Shown here one piece after another: positions 38,031 to 55,799 of a DNA stretch of 64,000 nt (positions within the stretch are counted from its first letter, which is position 1; each line of letters starts with the position of its first letter). The translations under genes were made by a program, and so were the position numbers. This DNA is from Nitrospirota bacterium. GTDB taxonomy: Bacteria > Nitrospirota > Nitrospiria > SBBL01 > JAADHI01. The notes beneath the pieces are model-generated. The model saw nothing but the letters and a program-made list of their open reading frames with translations, had not been told where the DNA came from and ran no database searches. Location: contig JAJDBU010000061.1 in the NCBI GenBank assembly GCA_029261195.1, positions 1-64,000 on the forward strand. Direction: 5' to 3'.

Positions 38031-40103
38031 TTATTGGAAAATCCCCTCAAGTTTTGCTTTCTGAAGAACATCCACCAAAACCAGACACTGTTTGTCTGAC
38101 GGGATTTTATTCGGAATTTGTTCGGCAACTTTAAGAATTCCAATTTCTTTGGCACTCAGCATGTTCTTTTTTGTGCCCTCCTTGAGTACCAGAGTCCATT
38201 TTTCTATGGGGATTTTAAAAATCAGTTTCTGAGCCTCAATACCATCGTCAATCTTTTGGGTTTTTTTTGCTGATTTTTCTTCGACAATTCGGTCTTCCAC
38301 CGTAACCAGTTCATCCCGAAACTCATCAGGAAGTAGTCTTTCCAAATCAACCATTCGCCCTTGTATCCTTAGCCAGCAGCCCTCTTTCTTTGCCCATTCG
38401 GAAATATTGGAAATACCCTGTGGAGGGTAAATAATGTCATCATTCACAAATTTTGCGGCGATAGCCAATGAGTCCGATAGGGCCGAGGAGAGGGATTGGG
38501 TATCCCATATCATTTTGTGATTTATCGATTGCCTGCGCCGTCTGCAGCATTCGTTTATTGACGCAATTGCGTAAGAAACAATGTTGGCCCGATAGCCCCC
38601 GTTGTACCAGGGTTGTTTTGGAACCAGCCTCTCTGTCTTCCGGAATATAATGGCACGTGAGATCATCCGCTTATAGTAAAGCTCATTGAAACTGTCAGGG
38701 GATTTCGCCCATTCCTTGCCAATCCGACCTGCATATCGGGCAAAATTTTTCTGTGCGCCAAGATTGACCCAACGGGGATGATCATCCCAGACATTCTCAA
38801 ACTTCGCAAGATCAGTTTTCGTGAACATCTGAGGTTTGGGCTTTTCTGCCTTAAAACGGCGTCGTTCAGCCGGAGTCATTTTGGACTGTGCATCACCATA
38901 CTGGCCTCTGGCACGCTCATAAAACCAAAGGGTTTCCCGTTGTGCACCCTGCTGTGGCGGAGCCCAGATCCTTCTTGAAAAATTTTCCATGCGAATATGG
39001 AAGGGATGATTGGAAAAAAAGTCCGCTGCGTTCACACGATTCTGTGTGTTTGCGTACTCGGATATGCGAGGAACAATCGTTTCGCCTGCCTCACTGTCGA
39101 TAACAGACAGCTTCATCGGCACAAATATTTTTTTGAGTGAGGCTTTATCCTTTCGCCTTGTATGAAAGAGTGAGGCTGTTGTTTGACCCCCGTTTACGAT
39201 TTGAAGGTCTTTTATTCGGATGATTTCCTGACCTTTTTCGGTCATTTCCGTCTCGACCTCTTGTGCAGTGGCCGTAATGCCATTGTTGTACGCGAAGAAC
39301 ATATCGGGTTCATTCAGGATGGTACTTCTGATTCCTTTATTCACCTTGCTTCGGGCCTGAAGAAAACACCTGACATTCTGCTCCAGCAAGCGTGCACCAT
39401 ATTTTTCGTACAGGTCAGAGAGACCTTCGGCCGGCATGACAACCAGGTAAGACTGATGGGCATCAGAACCAAGATGAGCTGACAGGCACGAAAGGCCTCT
39501 CCCGAGTATTTCATGAAAATTCAGGTCCAATACCTCTTTGTGTCCGTGAGAACTACGTTGTCTCTGGAGTCTGGATATATCCCATATCTGATAAGTCGCA
39601 GGGATGCCGCAGACATTATTTTCTTCAATTGTCTGTAATCGCTCACTCAGTCCTCGTTCTGAAATCAGGAAAAAATTGATTTTACGAATCAGGTTCCCTG
39701 CCCTTCGGTCATAGATCTGACGTGAAAGGTCGTATTCAGGAGAGGTGTCCTCAAGATCAAGATAAAGCATGTTGTCTATGCTGGCGGTGAAAAAGTTGAC
39801 AACACGTTTGAATGTCGCTTCGACTTCTGTTCGTGTCAGTGAGGCGAGTTCCGCTCTGCAATCGAAATCAGAGACAAAAAGATCAAGGCTTTCCTGCTCG
39901 TCATTGAACCAGTAACCGTCCACTCGCATACCGCGAGGGGGACGAAAATAGCAATGCTCAAAGCCTTCAATAAAACCGGTTTCTATCAATTCATTTGTAA
40001 CGGCATCCATAAATTCGGAGAGCTGAAAGCTATTGTTCGCTTCAGCCCCCGCCATAAGTCCCTGTCGAAAATCATGAAAAAAAGCTTCTGTTGTCTGCTC
40101 CAT
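38031..40103 (-). CDS. AIPR-family phage-resistance protein
   Basis: 690 residues matching the AIPR (abortive infection phage resistance) family. Visible landmarks are EPDMFFAYNNGITATAQEVE, IKDLQIVNGGQTTASLFH and SEYANTQNRVNAADFFSNH. The frame is intact at normal length. A GGAGG that includes the stop of the preceding PD-(D/E)XK gene lies seven bases before the ATG, so the two are coupled. It is the last gene of the minus-strand restriction-like island. Biochemical activity is unknown; the family recurs in restriction-modification and abortive-infection neighbourhoods. Confidence 0.88.
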   Translation of the reverse strand: MEQTTEAFFHDFRQGLMAGAEANNSFQLSEFMDAVTNELIETGFIEGFEHCYFRPPRGMRVDGYWFNDEQESLDLFVSDFDCRAELASLTRTEVEATFKRVVNFFTASIDNMLYLDLEDTSPEYDLSRQIYDRRAGNLIRKINFFLISERGLSERLQTIEENNVCGIPATYQIWDISRLQRQRSSHGHKEVLDLNFHEILGRGLSCLSAHLGSDAHQSYLVVMPAEGLSDLYEKYGARLLEQNVRCFLQARSKVNKGIRSTILNEPDMFFAYNNGITATAQEVETEMTEKGQEIIRIKDLQIVNGGQTTASLFHTRRKDKASLKKIFVPMKLSVIDSEAGETIVPRISEYANTQNRVNAADFFSNHPFHIRMENFSRRIWAPPQQGAQRETLWFYERARGQYGDAQSKMTPAERRRFKAEKPKPQMFTKTDLAKFENVWDDHPRWVNLGAQKNFARYAGRIGKEWAKSPDSFNELYYKRMISRAIIFRKTERLVPKQPWYNGGYRANIVSYAIASINECCRRRRQSINHKMIWDTQSLSSALSDSLAIAAKFVNDDIIYPPQGISNISEWAKKEGCWLRIQGRMVDLERLLPDEFRDELVTVEDRIVEEKSAKKTQKIDDGIEAQKLIFKIPIEKWTLVLKEGTKKNMLSAKEIGILKVAEQIPNKIPSDKQCLVLVDVLQKAKLEGIFQ

Positions 40104-40107
40104 GCTT

Positions 40108-41076
40108 TTACCTCCAAATCAATGAGACATCGCATTCGAACGGCTCCAATTTTTCCAGTTTGATTTCATAACCCACCTGAACGATCCCGTCCGGAAGACC
40201 GGACCGAATCAGTCGTGGGAAATCATCCATCACCCTGAAAGTCCGCTGGCTTGAAATCAGAAACTTTGGTTCATCATAGTCCCGCATTTCGACGTAACCA
40301 TATGCGGCAAGTTTACGGGGAAATTCTTCAATCGCGTCAGAGTCCGTTATATCCCGCTCAATCTGTCGGGCGAGCTCATTCAGGGAAATGGCACGGTCAG
40401 ACTCAGGAATTTCGCTCAGGCGGTAGATCATCAGGTAGAGATTGTCGGATAGCCCTTCCAACTGGTCCTCCGACGAAATCCGAACTGCACTGCGTTCCCT
40501 GCCGGAAAGCGATTTGACCTCTACTGAGGTGTTGGCGAAGATGAAATCCTGATGGGCACCCTCTGCACCGCACCAGGACTCAATTGCTGATTTCTCACTA
40601 AGGTGCGTGGGAAAGAGCGATTGAAGAAAAGATAATTCCGCAAACAAGCCACGAACCTCTTCCGCAGAGAGGAGCCTTTTATTTTTACCAGCCATGAATG
40701 CTTTCCATCGTTTAAGATGGGCCACAGCAACACTGAGGCCGGTTGTTGAATCCTTTACGTCTTTCAGAGACGACACAAGCGTTTCGCATAAACCAAGGAA
40801 TATATCCGTATCGACAAGGTTTTCCACGCTGATCACCAGGCCTTGCTTCTGGATTGTTCCCAGAAGTCTCAGATCAATTTTCAGACCATGAACAGAAATA
40901 CGATGTTTTTGAAATTGCCCGGAGTGATCACCATCCAGTTCCAGAATAAAAAGACAACGCCCTTCTGCATCTTTTCCCCAGTACAAAGGAATTGATGTAG
41001 CCGCAGCAACACTCCGAACATTGTAATCGGAACCGGGCGTCTTTATTTTGTCCCAGGGTGACTGCTTACTCGTCAT
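40108..41076 (-). CDS. DUF4420-like PD-(D/E)XK protein
   Basis: About 322 residues. ATG 41076 (MTSKQSPWDKIKTP) was chosen; it overlaps the Z1 stop by 11 bases. The nuclease core is seen as EVRGLFAELSFLQSLF (helix with Glu), then HQDFIFANTSVEVKSL, giving the D...E-x-K metal triad, so the active site appears complete. LVISVENLVDTDIF lies before it. Proteins of this family accompany Z1 and AIPR genes in predicted restriction systems, where they are the likely DNA-cutting part. The frame shows no damage. Confidence 0.85.
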   Translation of the reverse strand: MTSKQSPWDKIKTPGSDYNVRSVAAATSIPLYWGKDAEGRCLFILELDGDHSGQFQKHRISVHGLKIDLRLLGTIQKQGLVISVENLVDTDIFLGLCETLVSSLKDVKDSTTGLSVAVAHLKRWKAFMAGKNKRLLSAEEVRGLFAELSFLQSLFPTHLSEKSAIESWCGAEGAHQDFIFANTSVEVKSLSGRERSAVRISSEDQLEGLSDNLYLMIYRLSEIPESDRAISLNELARQIERDITDSDAIEEFPRKLAAYGYVEMRDYDEPKFLISSQRTFRVMDDFPRLIRSGLPDGIVQVGYEIKLEKLEPFECDVSLIWR

Positions 41077-43237
41077 AGCCCTCATCCTCGTCTGGAGCAT
41101 CTAATGATGAACCATACATCCCGTCAAGCCATACCTTGTTCACAACTACGGTGATCTCTTTGTCATAGTTGCCGTACGGAAAGCTGATCCCAAATGCGGG
41201 AACACGGCTCTGCCGAGCATTCCCCTCTCCCAGATCAAGCGCATGCAGCATAAGTAGAGGCTTGTTGCGTACTCTACGGAAATGGTGATCGGACAACTTC
41301 TCCTCTTTCGCCATTTCAAGTGCGCGTTGTCGTTGTGTATTAGACAGTCCCAGTTTTTCATCCCCTCTACTTGCGACGCGATCCTTGCTGGCCCGCCAAG
41401 CATCCTCGACCCGCCTAGCGCTGGCTCTTCCCTGAGTGCCAAGCCGATACCGGGCTGCGTCTTCACCATTCCCCTTCATGGAGATTAACAGGACATCACC
41501 TTTAGGGTGGTCCTCGGAGAGCCTGTCAAGGTAGTCGATGGCAGCAGCTTTTTTCCAAGAGAACCATGGATGAGATCGGAACCTCGTCAGGAACGCTTTG
41601 ATGACTTCGGTATCCACATCCTGAACTATCCAACCTTTGCGAGTCGAAACGAGAGCTTCCGCCCCCTTTCCGAATCCCTTTTTCCAGTATTCGGCAATGA
41701 GTTCTTCGTTTTCAATATTTATAGCTTTCTCTGTAGGCAGTGTATGACTCTCAATGAGGTCTCCATTGAAGTTCTGTTTGACGGTGATTTCTTCACCACT
41801 CCGCATTTTGTTAGCGGCGGTAATGAGCAAGCGATCCGGATGCGCTTTAACATAAAGACCGAATTGCCTGGGACTCAGCTGGTCGCGGCGCATACGTTTT
41901 ATCTGCTGCCGAAGCCCCTCGGAGGCTTCGGCAATATGCGAGTACCAGTTAATGGAATCAGGGGAGAGATGTACTCTGCATAAATCTTCGAAACCGGGCC
42001 GATACCCGAACCACCTTCCCATCTGCATCAGGGTGTCGTACATCCGGGTATTCCGATACATATAGCTGACGCAAAGGCCTTCTATCGTCAGACCACGCGA
42101 TAAACTGTACCCGCCTACCGCAATGGCCGTAAGGGCATCTCCGTCTTTTTCGTATTTCCTGTAATCCAGAGCCTCATCAGATTTGCTGTTCACAACAAAT
42201 ATACGCAGATTATCAAAGGCACTGAAAAGTGCGGCCTTAACCTCATGCCAGTCAAATCCACAGTTCGAATAACCCTCCAGGAATGTTTTCTTCAGTGCGG
42301 CCATATAATAATCTCGCCCTGAAACATGTTCAGGCATGGCGTAGTTTGATTTGACAGCCACCCGCAACTTTTTTTCATAGACACTGATAAAACCACGAAC
42401 CATATTCTGAATTGCCACAAGATATGACACGTTCACCATCATGGAGCAGTGCTTGTTACGGTGACCCCGCAGATTGCGTATCGCCCTGGCAATAATAAAT
42501 TGATTTATTGCTCTGTAAAGTGACGGGGGCAACTCATCTATGAAGGAATCTTTCTTCAGTGAAAACGGGATGTAGTTCTCGGCATCGGTAATTTCCTCAA
42601 GGATTGCTCCACTTGTCTCCTCATCAAGAAAAACCTTCTCCGGCCCGAAATAGGTGGTTGGTGCATCAAGACAGTATATAAAATCTCTCGGGAAGAGCTC
42701 TTCTCGTACCTGATCATCGTAAGACTCAGGATTGATGAAAATATTGGCAAATGGTGTCGCTGTGTATCCGACATAGCAGGATTTTGCGAAGAGACCCAGA
42801 ATTTTCCGGATCATGGCATTTGTGCGGGTAGGGTCTAAATCGGGCTTGTTTGTGTTGATAGATGCGTTGTCTGCCTCGTCATCAATCAGGAGCATTGGCA
42901 CATCGGTAATCTGACCATCTCCCTGGGCATTAAGCTCCTTCAACCATTTATGGAGAGAATCCAGCGTCCTGACATTCTTCTTGATAACCAGAATGATGGG
43001 TTTGCTGAAATCGTTCAGTTTCCAGCCACTCTGGCGAGCTGTATTTTTGTTGAAATCATCGTGGATGTTCGTAAGTGTTGCAGGATGTGGATATTGTCCT
43101 CCGATACCAACACCGATCAGTGCCCGGCCATCCGGATCGCTTGACCGCCCGACAAATCCTTCATCAATACGTTCCTGGGTTTGTTTTCTGAGGTTGTTTC
43201 TGGGAATGCTGAGATGGATGTACTTCCTTGGCGTTCT
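41066..43237 (-). pseudogene. Z1-domain helicase-like protein, 5'-truncated
   Basis: The frame is open from the stop at 43238-43240 for about 98 codons with no ATG, GTG or TTG until 42943, yet those codons encode family sequence (NNLRKQTQERIDEGFVG). So the gene is broken at its 5' end. What remains is LLIDDEADNASINTN (Walker B-like) and the Z1 motif region TLMQMGRWFGYRPGFEDLCR. The N-terminal part expected to carry the Walker A loop is absent from all frames up to the HNH gene. Z1 proteins are superfamily II-related ATPases of predicted restriction systems. A 625-residue product from TTG 42943 would lack ATP binding. Confidence 0.85.
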
Positions 43238-43303
43238 TTAAAAATGAATCGCGACATGCTAAATTATTTCAATCAATTAACAATCACCAAGGGTCACATC
43301 TAA

Positions 43304-44077
43304 ATGCCAGAGAGACGAAAATGGAACCGACAAGAATTACTTGTTGCTCTGAAAATTTATTGCGAATTAGAATTTGGCCAGTTTCATGCACTCCATCCAC
43401 GGATAATAGAGATCGCTTCTTTCTTAAACAGGACACCAAGTGCTTTGGCAATGAAGCTCTGTAATTTTGCAAGCCTTGATCCGTCCATGATGGGGAAAGG
43501 CTTAAAAAGGGTGAGTAAGGCCGATACTGAAATAATCGAGAACTTCCTTGCTAATCCAGAGGTTATCATCCTTGAATCTGGACGAGCTTGCACCCAGCTC
43601 ATGACTACGACAGGTAATGATGATGTCGATGAAAGGCCAGAGTCTTTTGTACCCGATTACAGAAAATTTGGAGAGACAGAAAAGGTTTCGGAAGTCAAAA
43701 CAAGGACGGTGCAACAATTTTTTCGATCGGCTGTTGTTTCAAGTTATCATTTCAAATGTGCTATTTGCGAACTCAGTATAAAAGATCTCCTCATTGCATC
43801 TCATATTGTCCCGTGGGCAGAAAAAGTTGAAAGTAGAGCCGACCCTTCAAATGGGATATCTCTTTGCGCATTGCACGATAAAGCTTTCGATAGAGGGTTA
43901 ATGACCGTAGATCAAGATCATAGAATTTTGATAAGCCCTAAACTTAAATCAGCCGGGGGCCAAGTTATTGCTGATATGTTCTCCCGATTTGAGAACGAAA
44001 AACTGCACTTACCTTTTCGATTCGCTCCCAATGTAGAATATTTAAATTGGCATCAGGAGCATAGGTTTCAAAGTTAA
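43304..44077 (+). CDS. HNH endonuclease
   Basis: 257 residues, intact, on the opposite strand to its neighbours. The C-terminal half has the zinc/HNH core CAICELSIKDLLIASHIVPW followed by NGISLCALHDKAFDRGLMTV, a complete beta-beta-alpha metal site. The N-terminal part (NRQELLVALKIYCELEFGQF) is helical and probably DNA-binding. Such proteins often are restriction enzymes paired with a C5 methyltransferase. It lies exactly between the Vsr-like remnant and the broken end of Z1, and it looks more AT-rich than the flanking genes, suggesting separate acquisition. Confidence 0.88.
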   Translation: MPERRKWNRQELLVALKIYCELEFGQFHALHPRIIEIASFLNRTPSALAMKLCNFASLDPSMMGKGLKRVSKADTEIIENFLANPEVIILESGRACTQLMTTTGNDDVDERPESFVPDYRKFGETEKVSEVKTRTVQQFFRSAVVSSYHFKCAICELSIKDLLIASHIVPWAEKVESRADPSNGISLCALHDKAFDRGLMTVDQDHRILISPKLKSAGGQVIADMFSRFENEKLHLPFRFAPNVEYLNWHQEHRFQS

Positions 44078-44105
44078 ATTTCTGATTCTATTGCCTTCAA
44101 AATTA

Positions 44106-44463
44106 TTATTGTGCGAGAAGATCTGTATGCTGGTAGCCCAGATAAGCCAGTTCGGCCGCCTTTCGTTTATCACGCTCTATAAGTGCCCTTGAGTTTGGTT
44201 TACCAAAAATCGGATCTAGTTTTCGGTGTGCTTGCCTTTGGACAACCTTTATACCTTTTCCAAATAGCATCCGTTCACGAAAATTACGGTGTGATATTTT
44301 AGAAATACAATATCGGTTTACCAGGAAGTTTTTTGTCGTGGAGGCGAAAACGGTATCCGGTCCTATTCAGCATCGACCGTAGAAGCATTTCCGGTCCCGT
44401 ATCCTTCTCCCGGATGCGGGACATGCCCCAACTACGTATCTCTTGAGGCAATGTATCAACCAA
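44106..44463 (-). pseudogene. vsr: Vsr-type mismatch endonuclease remnant
   Basis: From a TTG at 44463 the sequence reads RSWGMSRIREKDTGPEMLLR and GYRFRLHDKKLPGKP, the Vsr N-terminus. Matching continues only across frame changes near 44314, 44263 and 44202: DIVFLKYHTVIFVNGCYWKR, GCPKASTPKTRSDFW, RDKRKAAELAYLGY. So at least three frameshifts break it. The two active-site His of Vsr (in FVHGCFWH) are Asn and Lys here. It starts three to four bases from the likely original methylase end, the usual dcm-vsr order. It is not functional. Confidence 0.85.
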
Positions 44464-44509: not shown

Positions 44510-45998
44510 TCAAGAAGGGGGGACTGCATTTCCGACTTGTTTGTATTGCTCGGTCCGAGGGCCACAGAAATAGTAATTGTCAGGGAAAGTTTGTATCCGT
44601 GCGGCCTCACGAACGGTCAGACTTCTGGCCTGAGTGGGGTCAGGATGAATGAAATAATGACCATCTTTACTGAGCGTGACAGGTGATTGTCGTCGATGTT
44701 CTGTCGGCTACCTGAACACGAAATCGGTCTGCAAAATTGTTGTGCTTCATTGAGCGGGAAACATTTCTGTGTTTGGGTAAAAGGGCAGAGGGGAAGTGCC
44801 GTAGTTTCGGGGAGAAACCGTGTACTTTGGCATAGCTGGCTGCGAAGACATACCGATGGAGATCCTTCTCCATGTGAGATTTTGTCACATGGTTGCATAC
44901 TCCCCCGATACGCGGATCATGAAACCAATGACTGTTCCACTGAACCTTCGTCTCTGTGGTCCCTATAAATTCAGCCCCTCTATCCCTGTTTTGTGCATTA
45001 AGGTTCGACAAAATATTGATCATGAATGGACGAATTCCCTTGTCTTCAAGGCCTCCATTGAGAAACCACCTCTCATTTTTCATTGAAGTGAGCACAGAAA
45101 CCCAGTTTTCTCTTGAATCTGTCTTTCTTGAAAGACCACTCCTGAGATGCGGAAGATCGTCAATCACGCGACCCAGAGAGACTTCGTCGTCTACCGGAGA
45201 AAGTTGTTTCGGCACGGCCCGGGTGATGTCTTCTCGGATGCCAAGAATAATGACGCGGTGTCTGGCTTGTGGAATCCCGTACCGCTCGGCTTCCACTAAA
45301 AAATTCTTCTTCTCTCCGGTCTGGCACGCGTCCGGTTCCACGAGAGAATAAAGCCTGTATCCAAGGGTTCCTGCTGACCGGCCTATAGCCGATACGGGGG
45401 ATGTAAGATCCTCCAGCAGTCTCTCGAAGAGGTCTTTGTTGTGGAGCCTGGCAGAGAGCAAACCTTTGACGTTCTCCATGACAAACACACAGGGTTGATG
45501 ATCTGCAAGTATCTGGAGATACTCTGTATACAAAGTGCTGCGTTGGTCAGTTTCCGGGGTGTATCCCGAATTTCCTTTGTTTCTTGACCTGCCGACAACC
45601 GAGTAAGCCTGGCATGGAGGCCCTCCGACCAGAACAAAGTTCTTTCGTCTTCCAAGAACATTCTCTATCAGGGATCTGACATTTGCCTCCGGCCATTCTT
45701 TGCTCCCAAGCTCAACATTTTTGGCAATGGCATCTGCGTTGGCTGATTCTCCAGGGAAGGAATGATACAGATCCTCACGTGACAACTCCCCTCTCAAGTG
45801 CTCGTAGTAGTCATCAGGTACTTCTCCATCAGGAAACTCCCGGAAAAAGGATCTAAGCCGAAGGGTTTCCCACGCGTGTCTGTCTTTCTCAATAGAAAGA
45901 CAGACACGAAAAGGAATGCCGTGTGCCGGAGTGCGCAGGCTGGAGAAGCCTTCCCCAAGTCCCCCGGGGCCCGCGAATATGTCAATGACAGGTATCAT
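44510..45998 (-). pseudogene. dcm: C5 cytosine DNA methyltransferase, frameshifted
   Basis: The first 443 codons hold motifs I (DIFAGPGGLGEGF), IV (GGPPCQAYSVVGRSR, catalytic Cys), VI (FVMENVKGLL) and VIII (QARHRVIILGI). The frame then stops at 44667. The missing C-terminus is present in the next frame: [20 protein letters not shown] (motif IX) and [10 protein letters not shown] (motif X), so one base is out of register near 44675. A run of six C near 44516 may hide a second lesion; without it the original end could be 44467. Without motifs IX and X the enzyme should be inactive. Confidence 0.88.
45875..45908. repeat. Perfect 15-bp inverted repeat inside the methylase gene
   Basis: CGTGTCTGTCTTTCT and AGAAAGACAGACACG flank a four-base loop at codons about 31-41 of the methylase gene. 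The encoded residues (RVCLSIEKDRHAW) still fit the family, so the palindrome is accommodated in coding sequence. The mRNA would form a strong hairpin. Confidence 0.75.
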
Positions 45999-48299: not shown

Positions 48300-49799
48300 C
48301 TATGGTGAAATTATTAATCCAGTGGGTGCATTTGGTGCTTGTGTGTCTGGAACTGGCGGAACAGGCATACAAACAGTGTCATGTGTGTAGCTGATTGCAG
48401 ACAGGTGATGTAAGTAGTCTTCTATATCTGTGTACCCGTTATTGTCTTTATCTTGATTTCCGTCCAGTGGATTATTACTATCCAGTCCTTGCGCAGTCTC
48501 CCATGTGTCCGGCATTCCATCGTTGTCGGTATCTGTTGGTGGTGTTAGGTTTTGGAAGGTTGGATAATCGGAAGAAGAAACGTTACCTTTGAAGCCACCC
48601 GTTCTGTTATGGAAATTGTTTACTACTCGCACGTCAACACTATCCCGAACTGGTGCCATTGCACCTACCGCTGTAAGTATACAGCTTGCGACAGATTCTG
48701 ACATTACTTTATTAGTTACTGGCGGAACTTCTTTGGTATTTGACCATGGAAGCGTTGACCACCTCGTATCTTTTCTGTACAGGGTAGATAATCGTATGTT
48801 CTGCCAAAACTCTCCAATATTCCACTGTGGTTCAGATTGACTCAACCTCGATGATCCGATGTTGCCATGCACGTAAAACCGAGGGATTGGATTTGAATCA
48901 CTCCCAACTGTGCCTCCAGGAGGACGATAGGTTACTTCAAAGGAATAGCCATTGGATACTGGTCCTTGGCGGGCATAGTTATTCATAAAATTAGCCTTCA
49001 CTCCACCCGAAGCTGACGAGGTGAGTCCTCCAAACCATTGATACACAACGTTATTTACACTATCTAAAAATAGACTATCATTTCCATTTATCTCTGGGTT
49101 TCTCTCTCTGTTATGAGCAAAATAATTGTGATGCAGAGATACAGTCATCTCTTTTGCGTGTTTTCCCCAGATAAGCATACCCATGCCGTGGTTTTTTTCA
49201 CTGTGTCCTGCATCCAATAGCCCTTCTGAAAAAACAGACCATTGAAATGTTATGTCCCGAGGCGCATAAGCAACTTCAACATTCTCATCAACTCCCCAGC
49301 TAAATGAGTTATGGTCAAAGATAAGGTTATATCCATCGTTAAACTGATCAACCCACTTCCCCCAGATCTGCACAGCGTCTTGAGAGTCTAATTCCTTACC
49401 ACTAGCGTTTCCTGCTCCAACTCTCCAACGCATATGCCTAGAAATAACATCGTGAGTATTGAATCGAGTCGGTCTACCTGTGACCAATATACCACCAGGT
49501 GATGTTTCTCCAGCTATTGTAATGAAAGGATTATTAATCTTAAGAATTGATGTTAAACGAATTATTCCAGAAACATTAAACACAACAATCCTAGGACCTG
49601 AGGCCGTCGCAGCTGCTCTAAAACTGCCCGGACCACTGTCATTTAGATTGGTCACTTTGATGACTTGCCCCCCTCTTCCGCCAACCGACTTTGCACCGAA
49701 GCCTTCGGCCCCGGGAAAGGCTGGAACAGCATGTGCGGCATTTGGGTAAACAAGAAACAGAATGAATATTCCAAGAACATAATTTTTGATTTGATTCAT
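48300..49799 (-). CDS. Secreted pectate-lyase-like beta-helix protein, C-terminally truncated
   Basis: 499 residues. A signal peptide (NYVLGIFILFLVYPNAAHA) precedes a right-handed beta-helix of the pectate lyase type (VPAFPGAEGFGAKSVGGRGG, then LHHNYFAHNRERNPEINGND). A calcium-binding repeat follows (DTDNDGMPDTWETAQGLDSN, NPLDGNQDKDNNGYTDIEDY). The chain stops at PDTQAPNAPTGLIISP, which is the usual beginning of a fibronectin-III domain, so about one domain plus any C-terminal sorting tail is missing. Substrate is likely an acidic polysaccharide. The truncation abuts a possible mobile-element end. Confidence 0.82.
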   Translation of the reverse strand: MNQIKNYVLGIFILFLVYPNAAHAVPAFPGAEGFGAKSVGGRGGQVIKVTNLNDSGPGSFRAAATASGPRIVVFNVSGIIRLTSILKINNPFITIAGETSPGGILVTGRPTRFNTHDVISRHMRWRVGAGNASGKELDSQDAVQIWGKWVDQFNDGYNLIFDHNSFSWGVDENVEVAYAPRDITFQWSVFSEGLLDAGHSEKNHGMGMLIWGKHAKEMTVSLHHNYFAHNRERNPEINGNDSLFLDSVNNVVYQWFGGLTSSASGGVKANFMNNYARQGPVSNGYSFEVTYRPPGGTVGSDSNPIPRFYVHGNIGSSRLSQSEPQWNIGEFWQNIRLSTLYRKDTRWSTLPWSNTKEVPPVTNKVMSESVASCILTAVGAMAPVRDSVDVRVVNNFHNRTGGFKGNVSSSDYPTFQNLTPPTDTDNDGMPDTWETAQGLDSNNPLDGNQDKDNNGYTDIEDYLHHLSAISYTHDTVCMPVPPVPDTQAPNAPTGLIISP

Positions 49800-50540
49800 T
49801 GTGTATTTCCCTTCAAATACAATGTATTATTATCTCAAATTTATAGGCAGCTCAGGTTTAATGGCCCATAGTTTGGCTTAGTAATCATTTTCCTGATTCC
49901 GAATTAAAGCAATATGCATGCCGATGAGGCGAATCAACTTGAAAAACGGCGAGAATTTCAGTTATTAATGAAATAGTACTAGCTTTTTCCCATTCTGTAA
50001 GGCTGGCATGTTCATTACCATGTAATTTTCACCTAGAGGTTATGTAGTGAGTTGCCCATTTAACTTTATTGGTCATAATGTTCATGGATTGCCGTAGAAT
50101 CTGAATAGTGGCTTAAGTCGCAATGTGGACACAAATTAGAGCGTAATAATATTAACCACTCACGATTTTGATTAAACAACATCTACAATGTAGGACAGCC
50201 CTAGTGTTTCATAAAAGCGAACAGTATAACTTGGCTCTCAGGCCTTTGCTCAATGTGCCAGAACTACGAATCAATAAAGAGCCCACTAGAAACACACATC
50301 TAAAGGATTCTACAGCGTCGGACTTCAAGCGCTTTTAATGCCCCTAAGGGAAGTCTGGAATCCGTCATTTCAAACAGCTCAATCAAGAGCATGAGGCTAA
50401 CGACGAAGACATTTAACACATTAAACCATAATTTACATGATCGCAGTTCCTATGCGTTTTCCACTCAATTCCCATTACACGACAAGGATCCCAGGAAAAG
50501 TGCCATTTTTTCCTGACCAGATAGAACAGCCCGTTTAATA
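49800..50540. other. 741-bp gene-free stretch before the glycan cluster
   Basis: AT-rich and closed by stops in all frames, with no tRNA or strong hairpin seen. It separates the minus-strand lyase from the plus-strand glycan cluster and may hold the cluster promoter, but no good -35/-10 pair or sigma54 element stands out. Confidence 0.5.
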
Positions 50541-51839
50541 ATGAAAAAAATATTACAAGATCGCTTATTAAAAAAAATCATCAAAAACTCCGGCATCATT
50601 TTTTTTGGTCACTCAACTGCGTCTGTATTGAGTGTTATTTCGTTTACGATTATGGCCAATATCATTGGTCCGGAGACATTGGCAATATTTGTATTAGCAC
50701 AATCTTATTCCATGATTTTAAATGATATTTTCAATATTCAGACCTGGGAGTCGATGATTAAGTTCGGTTCTGCTCAGACCGGAAAACAGGGAATGACCAA
50801 TGTCATTAAAACCAATGTGTTTTTGGATGCCGTCAGTGCAGTGCTTGCAGCTTTTTTTGCATTGTTATTCGTCTATCCTGTGGGCTCTTTTTTTGGTTGG
50901 GAAGAATATTTTTTGCCTGTTATCTCTATCTACAGCATCTCGATCCTCTTTAATATTACAACCCTGACCATCGGAATTCCCAGGTTATTCGATCAATTTT
51001 CTTCCCTGGCAAAAATTCAAGTGTCGATGTCATTTTTAAAACTGATTCTCATTCTAATTGCGATGGCAACAACTAACAGATATGAGATTTATATCTATAT
51101 TTTTTTACTGATCGATATCCTCCAAAATATATCCTTAATTACCTTTAGCACAGTCTTACTCAATCGCTCCTATGGGCGTGGATGGTGGAAAACCCCTCTC
51201 AAATTCGACCAAGAACAAATCAAATTTATTTGGTGGACCAATTTAAGATCGATCATTAGAATCCCGGTGCAACGCCTGGATATGATCGTGATCAGTTCTA
51301 TTTTATCAATGAAAACAGTGGGCGTTTACAAAGTTTATAAGGAAGTGGCGAGTTTGATTAACCGTTTAGGGGAACCCATTAATCAAGCAATCTTTCCTGA
51401 ATTTACAAAACTTTTAGGGAAAAAAGATTTGTCAAAAACATCTTATGTGACTAAAAAGGCGATTTCTCTATTGTCCTGCGTTAGTTTTGTGGTCATGCTT
51501 TCGTTGTTTATTTCATCTGAATTTCTGGTGGGAACCTTCTTTGGGGCAGAATATCTTCCTGAACTGAATGTGCTTTATATCTTGTTAATTATAGTTGGGA
51601 TCAGCTTTGCTTTGGTGCCGATTAATTCCTTGTTTATTGCCGCAGGTTTTGCAAGGCTTAGTTTTTTTATTGTTTTGTTTACAAATACGGCATACTTAAT
51701 CACCATATTTCTATCTACAAAACTGCTTGGTCTTTATGGAGTCGTATTGGCTTTTGCAGTTCAAATGGTCTTAAATCAAGGCTTGAAGGTGATTTTTCTG
51801 CGAAAATATTCTAGTGATTGGGGAAGCGGAATTCGGTAG
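50541..51839 (+). CDS. Oligosaccharide flippase (Wzx/RfbX-like)
   Basis: 432 residues with about 12 membrane helices and a basic N-terminus (MKKILQDRLLKKIIKNSG). The pattern is that of the polysaccharide-transport (MATE/MOP) family that moves lipid-linked repeat units across the inner membrane. It opens a plus-strand run of glycan genes; the asparagine synthetase follows ten bases later. Confidence 0.85.
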   Translation: MKKILQDRLLKKIIKNSGIIFFGHSTASVLSVISFTIMANIIGPETLAIFVLAQSYSMILNDIFNIQTWESMIKFGSAQTGKQGMTNVIKTNVFLDAVSAVLAAFFALLFVYPVGSFFGWEEYFLPVISIYSISILFNITTLTIGIPRLFDQFSSLAKIQVSMSFLKLILILIAMATTNRYEIYIYIFLLIDILQNISLITFSTVLLNRSYGRGWWKTPLKFDQEQIKFIWWTNLRSIIRIPVQRLDMIVISSILSMKTVGVYKVYKEVASLINRLGEPINQAIFPEFTKLLGKKDLSKTSYVTKKAISLLSCVSFVVMLSLFISSEFLVGTFFGAEYLPELNVLYILLIIVGISFALVPINSLFIAAGFARLSFFIVLFTNTAYLITIFLSTKLLGLYGVVLAFAVQMVLNQGLKVIFLRKYSSDWGSGIR

Positions 51840-51849
51840 GAGCTTTTTT

Positions 51850-53802
51850 ATGTGTGGCATCTTTGGTGAATATTTGTTTTGCGGTGAGATTGAAATTGAT
51901 CGTTGCGTCAATAAATTAAATTTATTGGAACGCCGGGGACCGGATGGTTTTGGTTTTGAATTTGGAAACTATAAAGAGGGAAAGTACCAGCTCTACCATA
52001 ATCAGGACATGCTGAAAAACAGTAAAGACCTTAATCCTCAATTCAATTATTTTAGTGGTCATCGTCGATTAAGTATTTTGGACTTAAGTGAAAATGCTTT
52101 TCAGCCAATGGAAACAAGCGATAAAAGGTATTCCATTATTTTTAATGGAGAGATCTACAATTATATAGAACTCAAAAAAGAATTAACGGCCCTGGGCGTT
52201 CGTTTTCACACAGATCATTCCGATACTGAGGTGCTATTAAACGCCTATTCTGAATGGGGAACGGACTGCCTCTGTCGAATCAGAGGGATGTTTGCTTTTG
52301 CGATTTTTGACAGAGTGAATCAAACGGTATTTTTAGCTCGGGATAGAATCGGGCAAAAACCGCTCTATTATGAGTTTTCGGATGAAAAATTTTCATTTTC
52401 ATCCGAGTTAAACCCATTGATTCAGTTTTCAAATTCAAAAAGAAAAATTGATTTAGAAGGCTTAAGATATTACATGGCCTTCGGTTATATCCCACACCCC
52501 ATTTCTATTTTTGAAGGCATTAAAAAACTCCCTCCGGCTTCTTATGCTCTGGTTGACCTAAAAGAGAAATTAATTCAAATTGAGCGGTATTGGGATGTGT
52601 CTTTTTCTGAGGGAAATGAAACGGAGACATTCGAAGACTATAAAGAGGATGTTGAAAAACTGATCACGGAGTCGGCCGCTTTGCGCCTCAGGTCGGATGT
52701 TCCGGTCGGGGCATTTATTTCAGGAGGGATTGATTCAACTTTAGTTGTAAAAAAAATAAAAGAAATCGGGAAAAAGAAGTTCGATATCTTTGGTGCTGAT
52801 TTTCCTCAAGAGGATAAAAGCGAAAAAAAATACATGGAGAAGGTTGCATCAAGATATGAGCAAAACCTTAATGTGTCCTATATCGACTTGTCTCATGTTG
52901 AAAATATAGAAAATGTTGTCAAAGTTTTTGATGAACCCTTTGATGGCGGATCATCAATTGCCTTATTTGATTTATTTAAAGTCGCCAGCAAAACCTATAA
53001 AGTCATTTTAACCGGAGATGGTGGAGATGAAATGTTTTCCGGCTATACCTATTATTCAAGCCTTCCTCAGCGACACAAAAAATTCAAATACCTGAAAATA
53101 CTCTTTTTCCCTGAGATTCTTCTTTCTTTATTATGGGTTCTACGCATTAGAAATAGAAAAATAAGAAAACTACTCCAATTGATTCAAGGAGATATTCTGA
53201 CGGCAGGTCTCATATTTAGTACGGAATCCGACCTCCTTGAGTTGATGAAGAATGAAAATCCGCCCTCACTTGAAATTGGTTTTTTTGAAGAGATTCGATC
53301 GAAAATAAAAAAATTGAAGCTTCAACCGGCAACAGCCTTGCAATACTTTGATGTGAATACCATCTTACCGGGCAGAATGTTATACAAACTAGATCGCTTT
53401 TCAATGTACTACAGCGTTGAGGCGCGTTCTCCCTTGCTGGATCATCTCTTGGCGGAAAAGGCTTTTTCTATTCCTCAAGAGATGAAAGAGAGGGACGGAA
53501 AAACAAAGTCATTGCTGAAGCGAATATTAGAAGATGATTTCGATAAGGGCTTTGTCCACCGGAAGAAGCAGGGCTTTGGAAATCCTTTAAGTCATTGGTT
53601 TAAAAATTCAAAACGGGGAGATATCTTTAAAATCCTCCTTGATGAAAAAAGTTTGATCTATCACTTTCTTGATTACAAACGCCTGCACGCTTGTTTCCCC
53701 CAAATAAAGGGTGGTTTTGACGGGACAAGGGAAAAAACATTATGGCGATTAATCGTTCTCGGGCAGTATCTGGAAAACTACAAATCGTATATTGAACATT
53801 AA
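51850..53802 (+). CDS. asnB: Glutamine-hydrolysing asparagine synthetase family
   Basis: The start was set at MCGIFGEY so that Cys2 becomes the N-terminal nucleophile after Met removal; the frame extends 12 codons further but that would bury it. 650 residues. The glutaminase domain (1-220) has GHRRLSILDLSENAFQPM, FNGEIYNY and HSDTEVLL. The synthetase domain has the PP-loop FISGGIDSTLV and LTGDGGDEMFSGY. In surface-glycan clusters such enzymes often amidate a sugar or uronic acid instead of making asparagine. Confidence 0.92.
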   Translation: MCGIFGEYLFCGEIEIDRCVNKLNLLERRGPDGFGFEFGNYKEGKYQLYHNQDMLKNSKDLNPQFNYFSGHRRLSILDLSENAFQPMETSDKRYSIIFNGEIYNYIELKKELTALGVRFHTDHSDTEVLLNAYSEWGTDCLCRIRGMFAFAIFDRVNQTVFLARDRIGQKPLYYEFSDEKFSFSSELNPLIQFSNSKRKIDLEGLRYYMAFGYIPHPISIFEGIKKLPPASYALVDLKEKLIQIERYWDVSFSEGNETETFEDYKEDVEKLITESAALRLRSDVPVGAFISGGIDSTLVVKKIKEIGKKKFDIFGADFPQEDKSEKKYMEKVASRYEQNLNVSYIDLSHVENIENVVKVFDEPFDGGSSIALFDLFKVASKTYKVILTGDGGDEMFSGYTYYSSLPQRHKKFKYLKILFFPEILLSLLWVLRIRNRKIRKLLQLIQGDILTAGLIFSTESDLLELMKNENPPSLEIGFFEEIRSKIKKLKLQPATALQYFDVNTILPGRMLYKLDRFSMYYSVEARSPLLDHLLAEKAFSIPQEMKERDGKTKSLLKRILEDDFDKGFVHRKKQGFGNPLSHWFKNSKRGDIFKILLDEKSLIYHFLDYKRLHACFPQIKGGFDGTREKTLWRLIVLGQYLENYKSYIEH

Positions 53803-53875
53803 TAGTGGATTCATGTAATCGAATGAATCTGAGTTTCTCCATGTTTTTTTTAAGAACTTATAGAAGGTAAAAACT

Positions 53876-54664
53876 TTGTTCCACGTTGAATTTGTTGGGG
53901 TTCCAGGCTCTGGAAAAAGTACGATTCGAGATGCCCTGATTGAACGATTACAAAAAGTAGACGCCAATCAGTTTTTAAAAATAGAGGACGCTTTTTTTCT
54001 GGTTTCAAAAGAAAAAACCGACAAAATCTATCGTTGGATGATTAACCTTCTCCCTCTGAGTCTCGGATATAAAGTAGTTGATAAATTATTCAATCGGACA
54101 CTCATGCAATTTGAAGCACAGAATCGCTTCCTCGCGAAATACGGGAAGGGCCTCAACGCATTTCTTTCATCAAGGGCCTATGATCAATTGGATGCGACTG
54201 ACAGAAGCAATGTCCTGACTGCATTCATTGAGACCGGCTCACTTTATGAGATGACCCAGGGTGAAATTGATTCAAATACAGCCGTTTTTTTTGAAGAAGG
54301 CCTGGTACAGAAATCTTTTATGTTTATTTCTCATTTACGAAAGCGAGAAGAAAATAACCTGCCTCTGCATGCCTATTTACAACATATCCCATTGCCGGAT
54401 GTCATCATTAATGTGAAAGCGGACTTTGCAGTATGTTACAACAGGATGAAAGAACGTCCAAAAGGCCTGACCAAACGGCTTAAAAATTCAAATGAAGATG
54501 TGATTTTAAATTTTTTAAAACGGTCCGATGCACATTTAATCGAAGTGACAAACTGGCTGGCTCATCACTCAAATACATTGATCATCGAAGTCCTTAATGT
54601 TGAAGATTTAGACGATGTAATAAATGATCTTGAAGCAAAGATAAAAACGACAATGCCCTTTTAA
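53876..54664 (+). CDS. P-loop kinase-like protein of the glycan cluster
   Basis: 262 residues from a TTG start. Walker A is FVGVPGSGKSTIRDALIERL at about residue 6. A second stretch AVFFEEGLVQKSFMF resembles the acidic motif of nucleotide and sugar kinases, and PDVIINVKADFAVCYNRMKE fits their nucleoside-monophosphate-kinase fold. It should phosphorylate a small molecule; the substrate is unknown. It sits between the synthetase and the deacetylase on the same strand. Confidence 0.72.
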   Translation: MFHVEFVGVPGSGKSTIRDALIERLQKVDANQFLKIEDAFFLVSKEKTDKIYRWMINLLPLSLGYKVVDKLFNRTLMQFEAQNRFLAKYGKGLNAFLSSRAYDQLDATDRSNVLTAFIETGSLYEMTQGEIDSNTAVFFEEGLVQKSFMFISHLRKREENNLPLHAYLQHIPLPDVIINVKADFAVCYNRMKERPKGLTKRLKNSNEDVILNFLKRSDAHLIEVTNWLAHHSNTLIIEVLNVEDLDDVINDLEAKIKTTMPF

Positions 54665-54719
54665 CAAAAACCATGTGCATTCAAGTGTATTTTTTTTTAA
54701 TACACCACAATTTCAGACA

Positions 54720-55799
54720 ATGAAAAACCTCATTAAAAAATATGCTGCGAAAGCACTTTGTACTTTGTGGATTGATTCTATCTTTCGGAGCTTGAACAAG
54801 AAAAAATTACTGGTTTTGACCTATCATGGCGTGTGCTTGCCCGAGCGCTGCCCGCCTTTATTCACTCAGCTTCCGGTTCATTTGTTTAGGGAGCAACTCA
54901 GTTTTATTAAACGACATTATCAGGTTATTTCTGTCGATGATTTAGTCGTATCTCTAAGAGAAAAGAAAAAACTACCCGAAAGGTCTGTTTTGTTAACCTT
55001 CGATGATGGTTTTATGAATAATTATAAAGTTGCTTTTCCCTTGTTGAAGGAATTTAATCTCCCGGCGGTTATTTATTTAACCACAGATTATATTGGTACG
55101 GATCAACACTTATGGTTTGATGAACTTTTTTTAAGCCTTAAGGCGGCCTTGGAAAACCATGTTGACCTTGAATCGATTGAAGACTTGTTTTCTTTTTCCA
55201 ATCTCCCGAATGATCTTGCCGAATTATATCCCCTGCTTTCAAATAAATTAAAAAGAAAGACCTTGAAGGAGCGTCTTCATCTCATTTCAAAACTAAAAAG
55301 TAAAAGTTCTTCGACTGAAGATCCCATGCAGGAAAACTTTAATCTCTTAACTTGGGAACAAGTGAAGGAAATGCACGCCTCCAAACTCATTCATTTTGGC
55401 GTCCATACAGCGACGCACCGCATTATCAGTGAACTCGATAAAGAAGAGTGGCACGAAGAAATTGCGGCCCCAAAAGAGCGTTTATCCGAGATGCTGAACT
55501 GTGAAGTCGCAACCTTTTGTTATCCGAATGGTATTCCGGATTTAGATTTCAACGAAAGCCATGAACAATACTTAATCGAAAAAGGTTATATCTGCTCTTT
55601 TTCGACAGCCGAATCATTAAACGACGCGAACTACAAGCCTTTTCGGATCGGGAGAGTTTCTGTCGGTAATGATTTAACCTCCGAAAAGAATTTTTTTAGA
55701 TTACAGACCTCTGGTTTTTTTTACGCATTAAAAAGTGTTTTCAGTAAAATTAATAATCCCAAGCGTAAGCAGCGTGAAATACAACCCGAAGAAATTTAA
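54720..55799 (+). CDS. Polysaccharide deacetylase (NodB domain)
   Basis: About 359 residues from ATG 54720 (MKNLIKKYAAKALC); a GTG at 54675 would add 15 unlikely residues. NodB motifs are visible: VLLTFDDGFMNNYKVAF (catalytic Asp pair), IHFGVHTATHRIISEL (metal His) and CEVATFCYPNGIPD. It should remove N- or O-acetyl groups from a cell-surface polysaccharide. No cleavable signal is clear, though the N-terminus is basic and mildly hydrophobic. Confidence 0.9.
   Translation: MKNLIKKYAAKALCTLWIDSIFRSLNKKKLLVLTYHGVCLPERCPPLFTQLPVHLFREQLSFIKRHYQVISVDDLVVSLREKKKLPERSVLLTFDDGFMNNYKVAFPLLKEFNLPAVIYLTTDYIGTDQHLWFDELFLSLKAALENHVDLESIEDLFSFSNLPNDLAELYPLLSNKLKRKTLKERLHLISKLKSKSSSTEDPMQENFNLLTWEQVKEMHASKLIHFGVHTATHRIISELDKEEWHEEIAAPKERLSEMLNCEVATFCYPNGIPDLDFNESHEQYLIEKGYICSFSTAESLNDANYKPFRIGRVSVGNDLTSEKNFFRLQTSGFFYALKSVFSKINNPKRKQREIQPEEI

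What the first reader, a model, noticed from the sequence alone, without database searches (positions are those of the whole stretch)
43304..44077. Intact HNH nuclease beside a dead cytosine methylase
If the HNH protein were the restriction partner of the C5 methylase, loss of the methylase should be lethal. Its intact active site suggests instead that it is modification-dependent, non-cutting, silent, or unrelated to this methylase. Its opposite orientation and AT-richer sequence fit separate arrival.
Basis: inference. Interest (0 to 1): 0.6.

Follow-up and report, generated by a model that had tools for sequence, protein, structure and literature searches.

The report
Stray nuclease replaced defence operon's ATPase
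An intact DNA-cutting (HNH) gene sits where the ATPase gene of a bacterial anti-phage operon should be; the operon has lost its engine and its cytosine methylase is dead, while relatives of the cutter persist in genomes with no such methylase, so it is a self-sufficient newcomer and not the methylase's partner.

Summary
In detail: 43304-44077 encodes a complete 257-aa HNH_2 nuclease with H167, N183, H191/D192 and D196 present. The methylase beside it is frameshifted twice, and the genome has no other C5 methylase.

The methylase is not half of a simple R-M pair. It belongs to an Mza-type operon. An intact relative (L068) reads MTase-Vsr-GHKL ATPase-Z1-DUF4420-AIPR. In the window, a segment of about 0.9 kb carrying HNH replaces the end of vsr, the whole ATPase gene and the first ~170 Z1 codons, Walker A included. 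With the restriction engine gone, methylase loss need not be lethal, and vsr has decayed too.

HNH homologues are mostly solitary. They show dN/dS of 0.04-0.18, and 13 of 21 host genomes checked have no C5 methylase. Yet C5-methylase sequence lies within 300 bp of 7 of 44 homologues, about 40 times background, and 6 of those 7 are remnants, including gonococcal NgoAXIII. One distant genome (L127) shows an independent HNH substitution in another broken Mza operon.

Verdict: separate arrival is supported, and partnership with this methylase is rejected. Modification dependence is plausible but unproven. Solitary nucleases beside dead methylases are already known; the Mza substitution is the new detail.

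The parts
43304..44077 (+). Intact HNH_2 nuclease gene, 257 aa: N-terminal helical part (residues 7-102), conserved R134/Q137/FFR139-141 helix, HNH core (residues 152-203)
43757..43912 (+). HNH_2 domain; H167, N183, H191/D192, D196 all present
   Evidence: residues equivalent to VcaM4I H224, N241, D250, D254 (PMC7897488)
43200..44130 (.). Approximate bounds of the substituted segment (at most ~0.93 kb; more likely ~43225-44100) that carries HNH and takes the place of ~2.1 kb of operon (end of vsr, whole GHKL ATPase gene, Z1 codons 1 to ~170). No direct or inverted repeat of 9 bp or more was found at the two edges
   Evidence: template L068
41066..43234 (-). Z1 (MzaC) gene lacking its N-terminal ~174 residues, including the Walker A GHVQSGKT (template residues 143-150); homology starts at 43198
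40108..41100 (-). MzaD / DUF4420 putative PD-(D/E)XK protein, open reading frame intact
38031..40103 (-). MzaE / AIPR protein, open reading frame intact
44130..44463 (-). Decayed vsr gene: pieces in three frames with internal stops, C-terminus missing on the HNH side
44516..45998 (-). C5-cytosine methylase gene of the Mza-type operon; main frame 45998-44667 keeps the PCQ, ENV and QARHR motifs, frameshift at ~44675 moves motifs IX-X (44674-44516) out of frame, second frameshift at ~44516

Best explanation
The HNH gene is a separately acquired, self-contained nuclease gene. It sits as a substitution (insertion plus deletion) in an Mza-type defence operon: C5 MTase - Vsr - GHKL ATPase - Z1 - DUF4420 - AIPR. 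Shown: the segment carrying HNH takes the place of the whole GHKL ATPase gene, the end of vsr and the first ~170 codons of Z1 with its Walker A motif. The methylase and vsr are decayed, while Z1 without its N-terminus, MzaD and MzaE stay open. Inferred: once the ATPase parts were gone the operon could not restrict, so methylase loss was harmless and not lethal. Only the co-occurrence is visible; the order of the ATPase loss, the methylase loss and the arrival of HNH cannot be read. HNH stays intact because its family works without a cognate methylase. Its most likely job is a solitary (type IV-like or otherwise conditional) restriction nuclease: the N-terminal helical part reads the target and the HNH core cuts, held off the host chromosome by target choice or auto-inhibition and not by protective methylation.
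For: Operon template: L068 (Z1 65%, MzaE 65%, MzaD 56% identical) has MTase, Vsr, HATPase_c_3 protein, Z1, MzaD and MzaE in the same order and on one strand. In the window no MzaB similarity remains and Z1 homology begins at residue 175. None of 10 Mza loci has HNH inside the operon. No other C5 methylase in the 99%-complete genome. HNH homologues without a C5 methylase: 13 of 21 HNH-bearing genomes have no PF00145 match and a 14th has only the remnant beside HNH; dN/dS is 0.04-0.18 among solitary homologues; their neighbours are varied ordinary genes. The PDB match of the nuclease half is VcaM4I: 4e-11 for the single sequence, 7.7e-20 for the profile; VcaM4I is modification-dependent and auto-inhibited (PMC7897488). 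Independent parallel: L127 (another phylum, HNH 38% identical) has HNH beside an MTase remnant, an ATPase fragment and a Z1 without its N-terminus, with MzaD and MzaE open.
Against: The order of events cannot be read from one genome; methylase decay may have come first. The assembly is a draft of 77 contigs, so a single frameshift could be an error, though vsr alone carries several. The C5-methylase association of the family (7 of 44 loci) shows it is not wholly unrelated to such methylases. No recognition domain was identified, and the structure model is poor (mean pLDDT 59). No sigma-70-like promoter was found upstream of HNH. Purifying selection was measured on homologues, not on this copy.
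Confidence: 0.8

Rival explanations
1. HNH is the restriction half of a C5-methylase R-M pair, left behind as an orphan after its methylase died.
For: L047 has an intact C5 methylase overlapping HNH by 4 bp. L110 has HNH-Vsr-GHKL-Methyltransf_35 in a row with an intact convergent C5 methylase. Six homologues lie beside C5-methylase remnants, including gonococcal NgoAXIII. Solitary restriction enzymes beside corrupted methylases are published (PMC3488263).
Against: In the window the methylase clearly belongs to the Mza-type operon and HNH interrupts that operon on the other strand. The methylases near homologues are of different families. Selection maintains HNH in genomes with no C5 methylase at all.
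Confidence: 0.1
2. HNH is a selfish, homing-like nuclease that invades C5-methylase and Mza loci; its cuts cause the neighbouring deletions.
For: At all six C5-methylase remnants the truncated end faces HNH. In L127 both the MTase and the ATPase are truncated on the HNH side. L005 carries a serine recombinase without its N-terminal domain directly after HNH. Methylase-gene sequence within 300 bp is about 40-fold enriched.
Against: No empty site with a clean insertion, no common target site and no edge repeats. Remnants are old and eroded, so the facing ends may reflect ordinary decay. Many homologues sit undisturbed among intact genes and are inherited in clades.
Confidence: 0.12
3. HNH is silent or inactive here, a bystander caught before decay.
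For: No promoter-like site upstream. Several homologues are broken by stops (G245, G289, G467, G733).
Against: All active-site residues and 41 of 44 near-invariant positions are kept while adjacent vsr and MTase are riddled with frameshifts; homologues are under purifying selection.
Confidence: 0.2

Closest known systems
Mza system (mzaABCDE) and related GHKL/MORC-Z1-DUF4420-AIPR operons with C5 methylase and Vsr (Gao 2020; Iyer 2008 PMC2292703; Miller 2022 PMC9523054)
   Same: MzaC, MzaD and MzaE models match at 2.7e-94, 1.2e-21 and 2.5e-85. Gene order equals intact relatives. C5 methylase and Vsr genes are reported in such operons.
   Different: Here the ATPase gene is gone, Z1 lacks Walker A, vsr and methylase are decayed, and HNH sits in the gap on the other strand. 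The canonical mzaA is a sigma factor (PMC9523054), not a methylase.
VcaM4I (EVE-HNH) and TagI (SRA-HNH) modification-dependent restriction endonucleases
   Same: The C-terminal HNH half aligns to VcaM4I, including the linker-helix segment and the active-site positions.
   Different: The first ~110 residues do not align with EVE or SRA; they are predicted all-helical. Modification dependence is not shown.
Solitary restriction endonucleases (Ershova 2012, PMC3488263), including PacI, a solitary endonuclease
   Same: Nuclease gene without a working cognate methylase; 74 of 272 published cases have a corrupted methylase nearby.
   Different: Here the corrupted methylase is not the cognate one but part of an interrupted Mza-type operon.
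Gonococcal NgoAXIII locus (Vsr plus truncated MTase; PMC6789123)
   Same: An HNH homologue (39% identical) lies ~280 bp after the truncated methylase, with vsr upstream and pheT downstream (L006).
   Different: HNH there is on the same strand as the methylase, and no Mza genes are present.

Membership tests
HNH_2 (PF13391) nuclease | Profile match above curated cut-off with H-N-H residues | tested here: met
   48.6 bits against cut-off 21; H167, N183, H191/D192, D196 present
PADLOC 'HNH' model PDLC04132 | Full-length match | tested here: met
   1e-83 over residues 1-256; which defence system this model stands for is not stated by the tool
Type II R-M partner of the adjacent methylase | Nuclease and methylase form one conserved unit | tested here: not met
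   The methylase belongs to an MTase-Vsr-GHKL-Z1 operon; no HNH in 10 Mza loci
Type II R-M partner of the adjacent methylase | Working cognate methylase in the genome | tested here: not met
   Only C5 methylase in the genome is the broken one; N6/N4 methylases exist but nothing links them to HNH
Modification-dependent HNH endonuclease (VcaM4I-like) | HNH domain of the same group | tested here: met
   7.7e-20 to VcaM4I over residues 110-255
Modification-dependent HNH endonuclease (VcaM4I-like) | Known modified-base reader domain (EVE, SRA, NEco) | tested here: not met
   No Pfam or PDB match to residues 1-105; helical prediction
Modification-dependent HNH endonuclease (VcaM4I-like) | Cleaves modified and spares plain DNA | not testable with these tools
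   needs enzyme assay
Mza system (the surrounding operon) | MzaC (Z1), MzaD, MzaE present | tested here: met
   NCBIfam MzaC scored 373.8 bits against an equivalog cut-off of 1500, so it is Mza-type and not the canonical MzaC
Mza system (the surrounding operon) | GHKL ATPase MzaB and complete Z1 | tested here: not met
   MzaB absent, Z1 lacks N-terminal ~174 residues with Walker A
Solitary restriction endonuclease | Nuclease gene with no non-corrupted corresponding methylase nearby | tested here: met
Homing endonuclease | Clean insertion with an intact empty site in a relative | tested here: not met
   Insertion is accompanied by ~2.1 kb deletion; no edge repeats

The most novel reading that the evidence does not exclude
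This HNH subfamily repeatedly substitutes into C5-methylase and Mza/GHKL loci and settles only where the local methylase is dead, because the nuclease attacks DNA carrying that methylase's mark: a natural incompatibility between a nuclease family and neighbouring cytosine methylases. It would explain why 6 of 7 adjacent methylases are remnants and why most HNH genomes checked lack C5 methylases. Intact C5 methylases beside HNH in L047, near it in L110, and elsewhere in the gonococcal genome require that the incompatibility be sequence-specific.
Probability: 0.12. Interest if true: 0.7.

Novelty: new member of a known kind. Interest (0 to 1): 0.42.

Why it matters
It resolves an apparent paradox (active-looking restriction nuclease, dead methylase) by showing that the two genes are not partners. 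It documents gene replacement inside an Mza-type operon, with a second independent case in another phylum. It also points to a widespread, uncharacterised solitary HNH nuclease family, under purifying selection in genomes without C5 methylases, and recurrently found beside dead C5 methylases, including the gonococcal NgoAXIII remnant. That recurrence makes the question 'how does a solitary nuclease spare its host?' testable with a few laboratory clones.

Tried and rejected
1. HNH as a component of Mza: rejected, absent from the operon in 10 Mza loci.
2. A hidden ATPase remnant in the gap: none found (best tblastn E 0.94, spurious).
3. Edge repeats or inverted repeats as a sign of transposition: none of 9 bp or more.
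4. Empty-site comparison in the family: Z1 is absent from the other 7 genomes, but the flanking glucokinase lies in other contexts or at a contig end, so no empty site could be read.
5. Structure: AlphaFold with 5 sequences gave mean pLDDT 59; Foldseek had no significant match, VcaM4I and TagI first.
6. Phage origin: of 80 viral-contig matches only two were full length (L129, L130). In annotated phages, one full-length match (33%) on a 6-kb record.
7. A first regex for C5 methylases missed L047 and the remnants; it was replaced by a profile search of six frames.
8. A wider class search returned no further homologue.

Full report
OBSERVATION. The window encodes on the + strand at 43304-44077 a complete 257-aa protein. 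It matches HNH_2 (PF13391, 7.6e-13) and, over its full length, PADLOC model PDLC04132 'HNH' (1e-83). Its closest found relatives are Rickettsiales MAG proteins at 57-58% identity, and it is the only HNH_2 gene in the genome. H167 and N183 are invariant in 44 of 44 homologues, and H191/D192 and D196 are present here. They correspond to H224, N241, D250 and D254 of VcaM4I (PMC7897488; position matching is mine). HNH is AT-richer than its surroundings (GC3 0.357 against a mean of 0.492, sd 0.064). That alone proves little, since the cluster at 48-56 kb is similar.

THE NEIGHBOURHOOD. Downstream of HNH, on the - strand, lies a gene identified as a C5 methylase (45998-44667). Its homology continues in a different frame at 44674-44516 (motifs IX-X) and is broken again after GNAVPP. 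Between this methylase and HNH is a vsr gene decayed into three frames (44463-44130). On the other side of HNH lie Z1 (MzaC, 43234-41066), DUF4420 (MzaD) and AIPR (MzaE), all on the - strand. In another genome of the same class, L068 carries the intact form: MTase, Vsr, a 492-aa HATPase_c_3 protein, an 885-aa Z1, MzaD and MzaE, all on one strand, with Z1 and MzaE 65% and MzaD 56% identical to the window. Such C5-methylase/Vsr/GHKL/helicase operons were described by Iyer et al. 2008 (PMC2292703) and related Z1-DUF-methylase-AIPR systems by Miller et al. 2022 (PMC9523054).

WHAT HAPPENED. Against L068, about 2.1 kb (the end of vsr, the whole ATPase gene and Z1 codons 1 to ~170) is missing. At most 0.93 kb carrying HNH stands in its place. 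The missing Z1 part holds the Walker A motif GHVQSGKT (template residues 143-150). The operon has therefore lost both ATPase parts. It is inferred that it can no longer restrict, so losing the methylase is not expected to be lethal, and Vsr, which repairs deaminated 5mC, loses its use. The methylase is the only PF00145 gene in a 99%-complete genome. None of the 10 Mza loci read contains HNH inside the operon. The order of events is not visible.

DOES THE HNH FAMILY NEED A METHYLASE? I read the surroundings of 44 homologues from two phyla and from plasmid-collection records. Most stand alone among ordinary genes. Of 21 HNH-bearing genomes in the phylum, 13 have no C5 methylase at all and one has only a remnant. 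Solitary homologues in several clades show dN/dS of 0.04-0.18. The family is thus kept by selection without a C5 methylase.

A RECURRENT NEIGHBOUR. C5-methylase sequence nevertheless lies within 300 bp of HNH in 7 of 44 loci, against 3 loci beyond 1.5 kb: a density ratio of about 40 and a crude Poisson P of 9e-10. One is intact (L047, 4-bp overlap). Six are remnants (L006, L042, L049, L052, L055, L127), each with its truncated end facing HNH. The HNHs of these seven loci are only 35-52% identical to one another, so these look like separate events. L006 is the gonococcal NgoAXIII locus: the paper reports Vsr plus a methylase that is truncated in all strains (PMC6789123). An HNH homologue follows it and pheT comes next. 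The paper's main text does not mention HNH.

A SECOND MZA CASE. L127, from another phylum, has HNH next to a methylase remnant, a middle fragment of the ATPase, a Z1 that begins at a nearly identical residue, and open MzaD and MzaE. L110 (HNH-Vsr-GHKL-Methyltransf_35 with an intact convergent methylase), L042 (methylase remnant-HNH-GHKL-379 aa-Vsr) and L129 (HNH-Vsr-NgoFVII-decayed Z1-C5 methylase) lie in related loci. HNH genes therefore keep turning up in C5-methylase/GHKL/Vsr defence loci, without a fixed partner.

HOW IT MIGHT WORK. The nuclease half resembles VcaM4I (7.7e-20 over residues 110-255) and weakly TagI, both modification-dependent HNH enzymes. VcaM4I's HNH domain is auto-inhibited and becomes a toxic nonspecific nuclease when the EVE domain and linker are removed (PMC7897488). 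Here the first ~105 residues are predicted helical and match no known reader. Conditional or modification-dependent cutting fits a nuclease that needs no protective methylase, but it is inference. PacI, a published solitary endonuclease, spares its host because the genome lacks its sites (PMC3488263), and that is a live alternative.

VERDICT. The supposed pairing was wrong: the methylase belongs to a broken Mza-type operon whose ATPase gene HNH has replaced. Solitary nucleases beside corrupted methylases are a known phenomenon (74 of 272 solitary enzymes in PMC3488263). The particular family, the double Mza substitution and the strong enrichment beside dead C5 methylases are, as far as these tools show, not described.

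Noticed in passing
L127:4727-12345 (G468:C89): Independent Mza operon with HNH, methylase remnant, ATPase reduced to about residues 179-307, Z1 starting at the equivalent of residue ~153-171, MzaD and MzaE open.
   Followed up: yes
L006:6956-8747 (N. gonorrhoeae NZ_CP119142.1, ~373.3-375.1 kb): An intact HNH gene lies between the truncated NgoAXIII methylase and pheT; it is not mentioned in the main text of the paper on gonococcal R-M systems that was read.
   Followed up: partly
L129:5983-12392: Viral contig with HNH, Vsr, a split NgoFVII-type restriction gene, a decayed Z1 and an intact C5 methylase in a row.
   Followed up: partly
L005:5336-7215 and L130:5371-8356: HNH directly followed by a serine recombinase; in L005 the recombinase lacks its catalytic N-terminal domain, in L130 it is complete and HNH follows directly on a repressor-like ORF.
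   Followed up: partly
L049, L051, L056, L057, L058, L128 and L048, L050, L053: Solitary HNH genes are followed by conserved small ORFs of 70-120 aa (MPTNDERAERG... and MNSVEQIEE...) without a Pfam match, possible co-inherited partners.
   Followed up: no
window 44130-44463: A vsr repair gene decayed together with the methylase it would serve.
   Followed up: yes
window 48300-55799: AT-rich cluster (polysaccharide-type genes: flippase, asparagine synthase-like, polysaccharide deacetylase) with GC and GC3 as low as HNH, so low GC is not special to HNH in this window.
   Followed up: no
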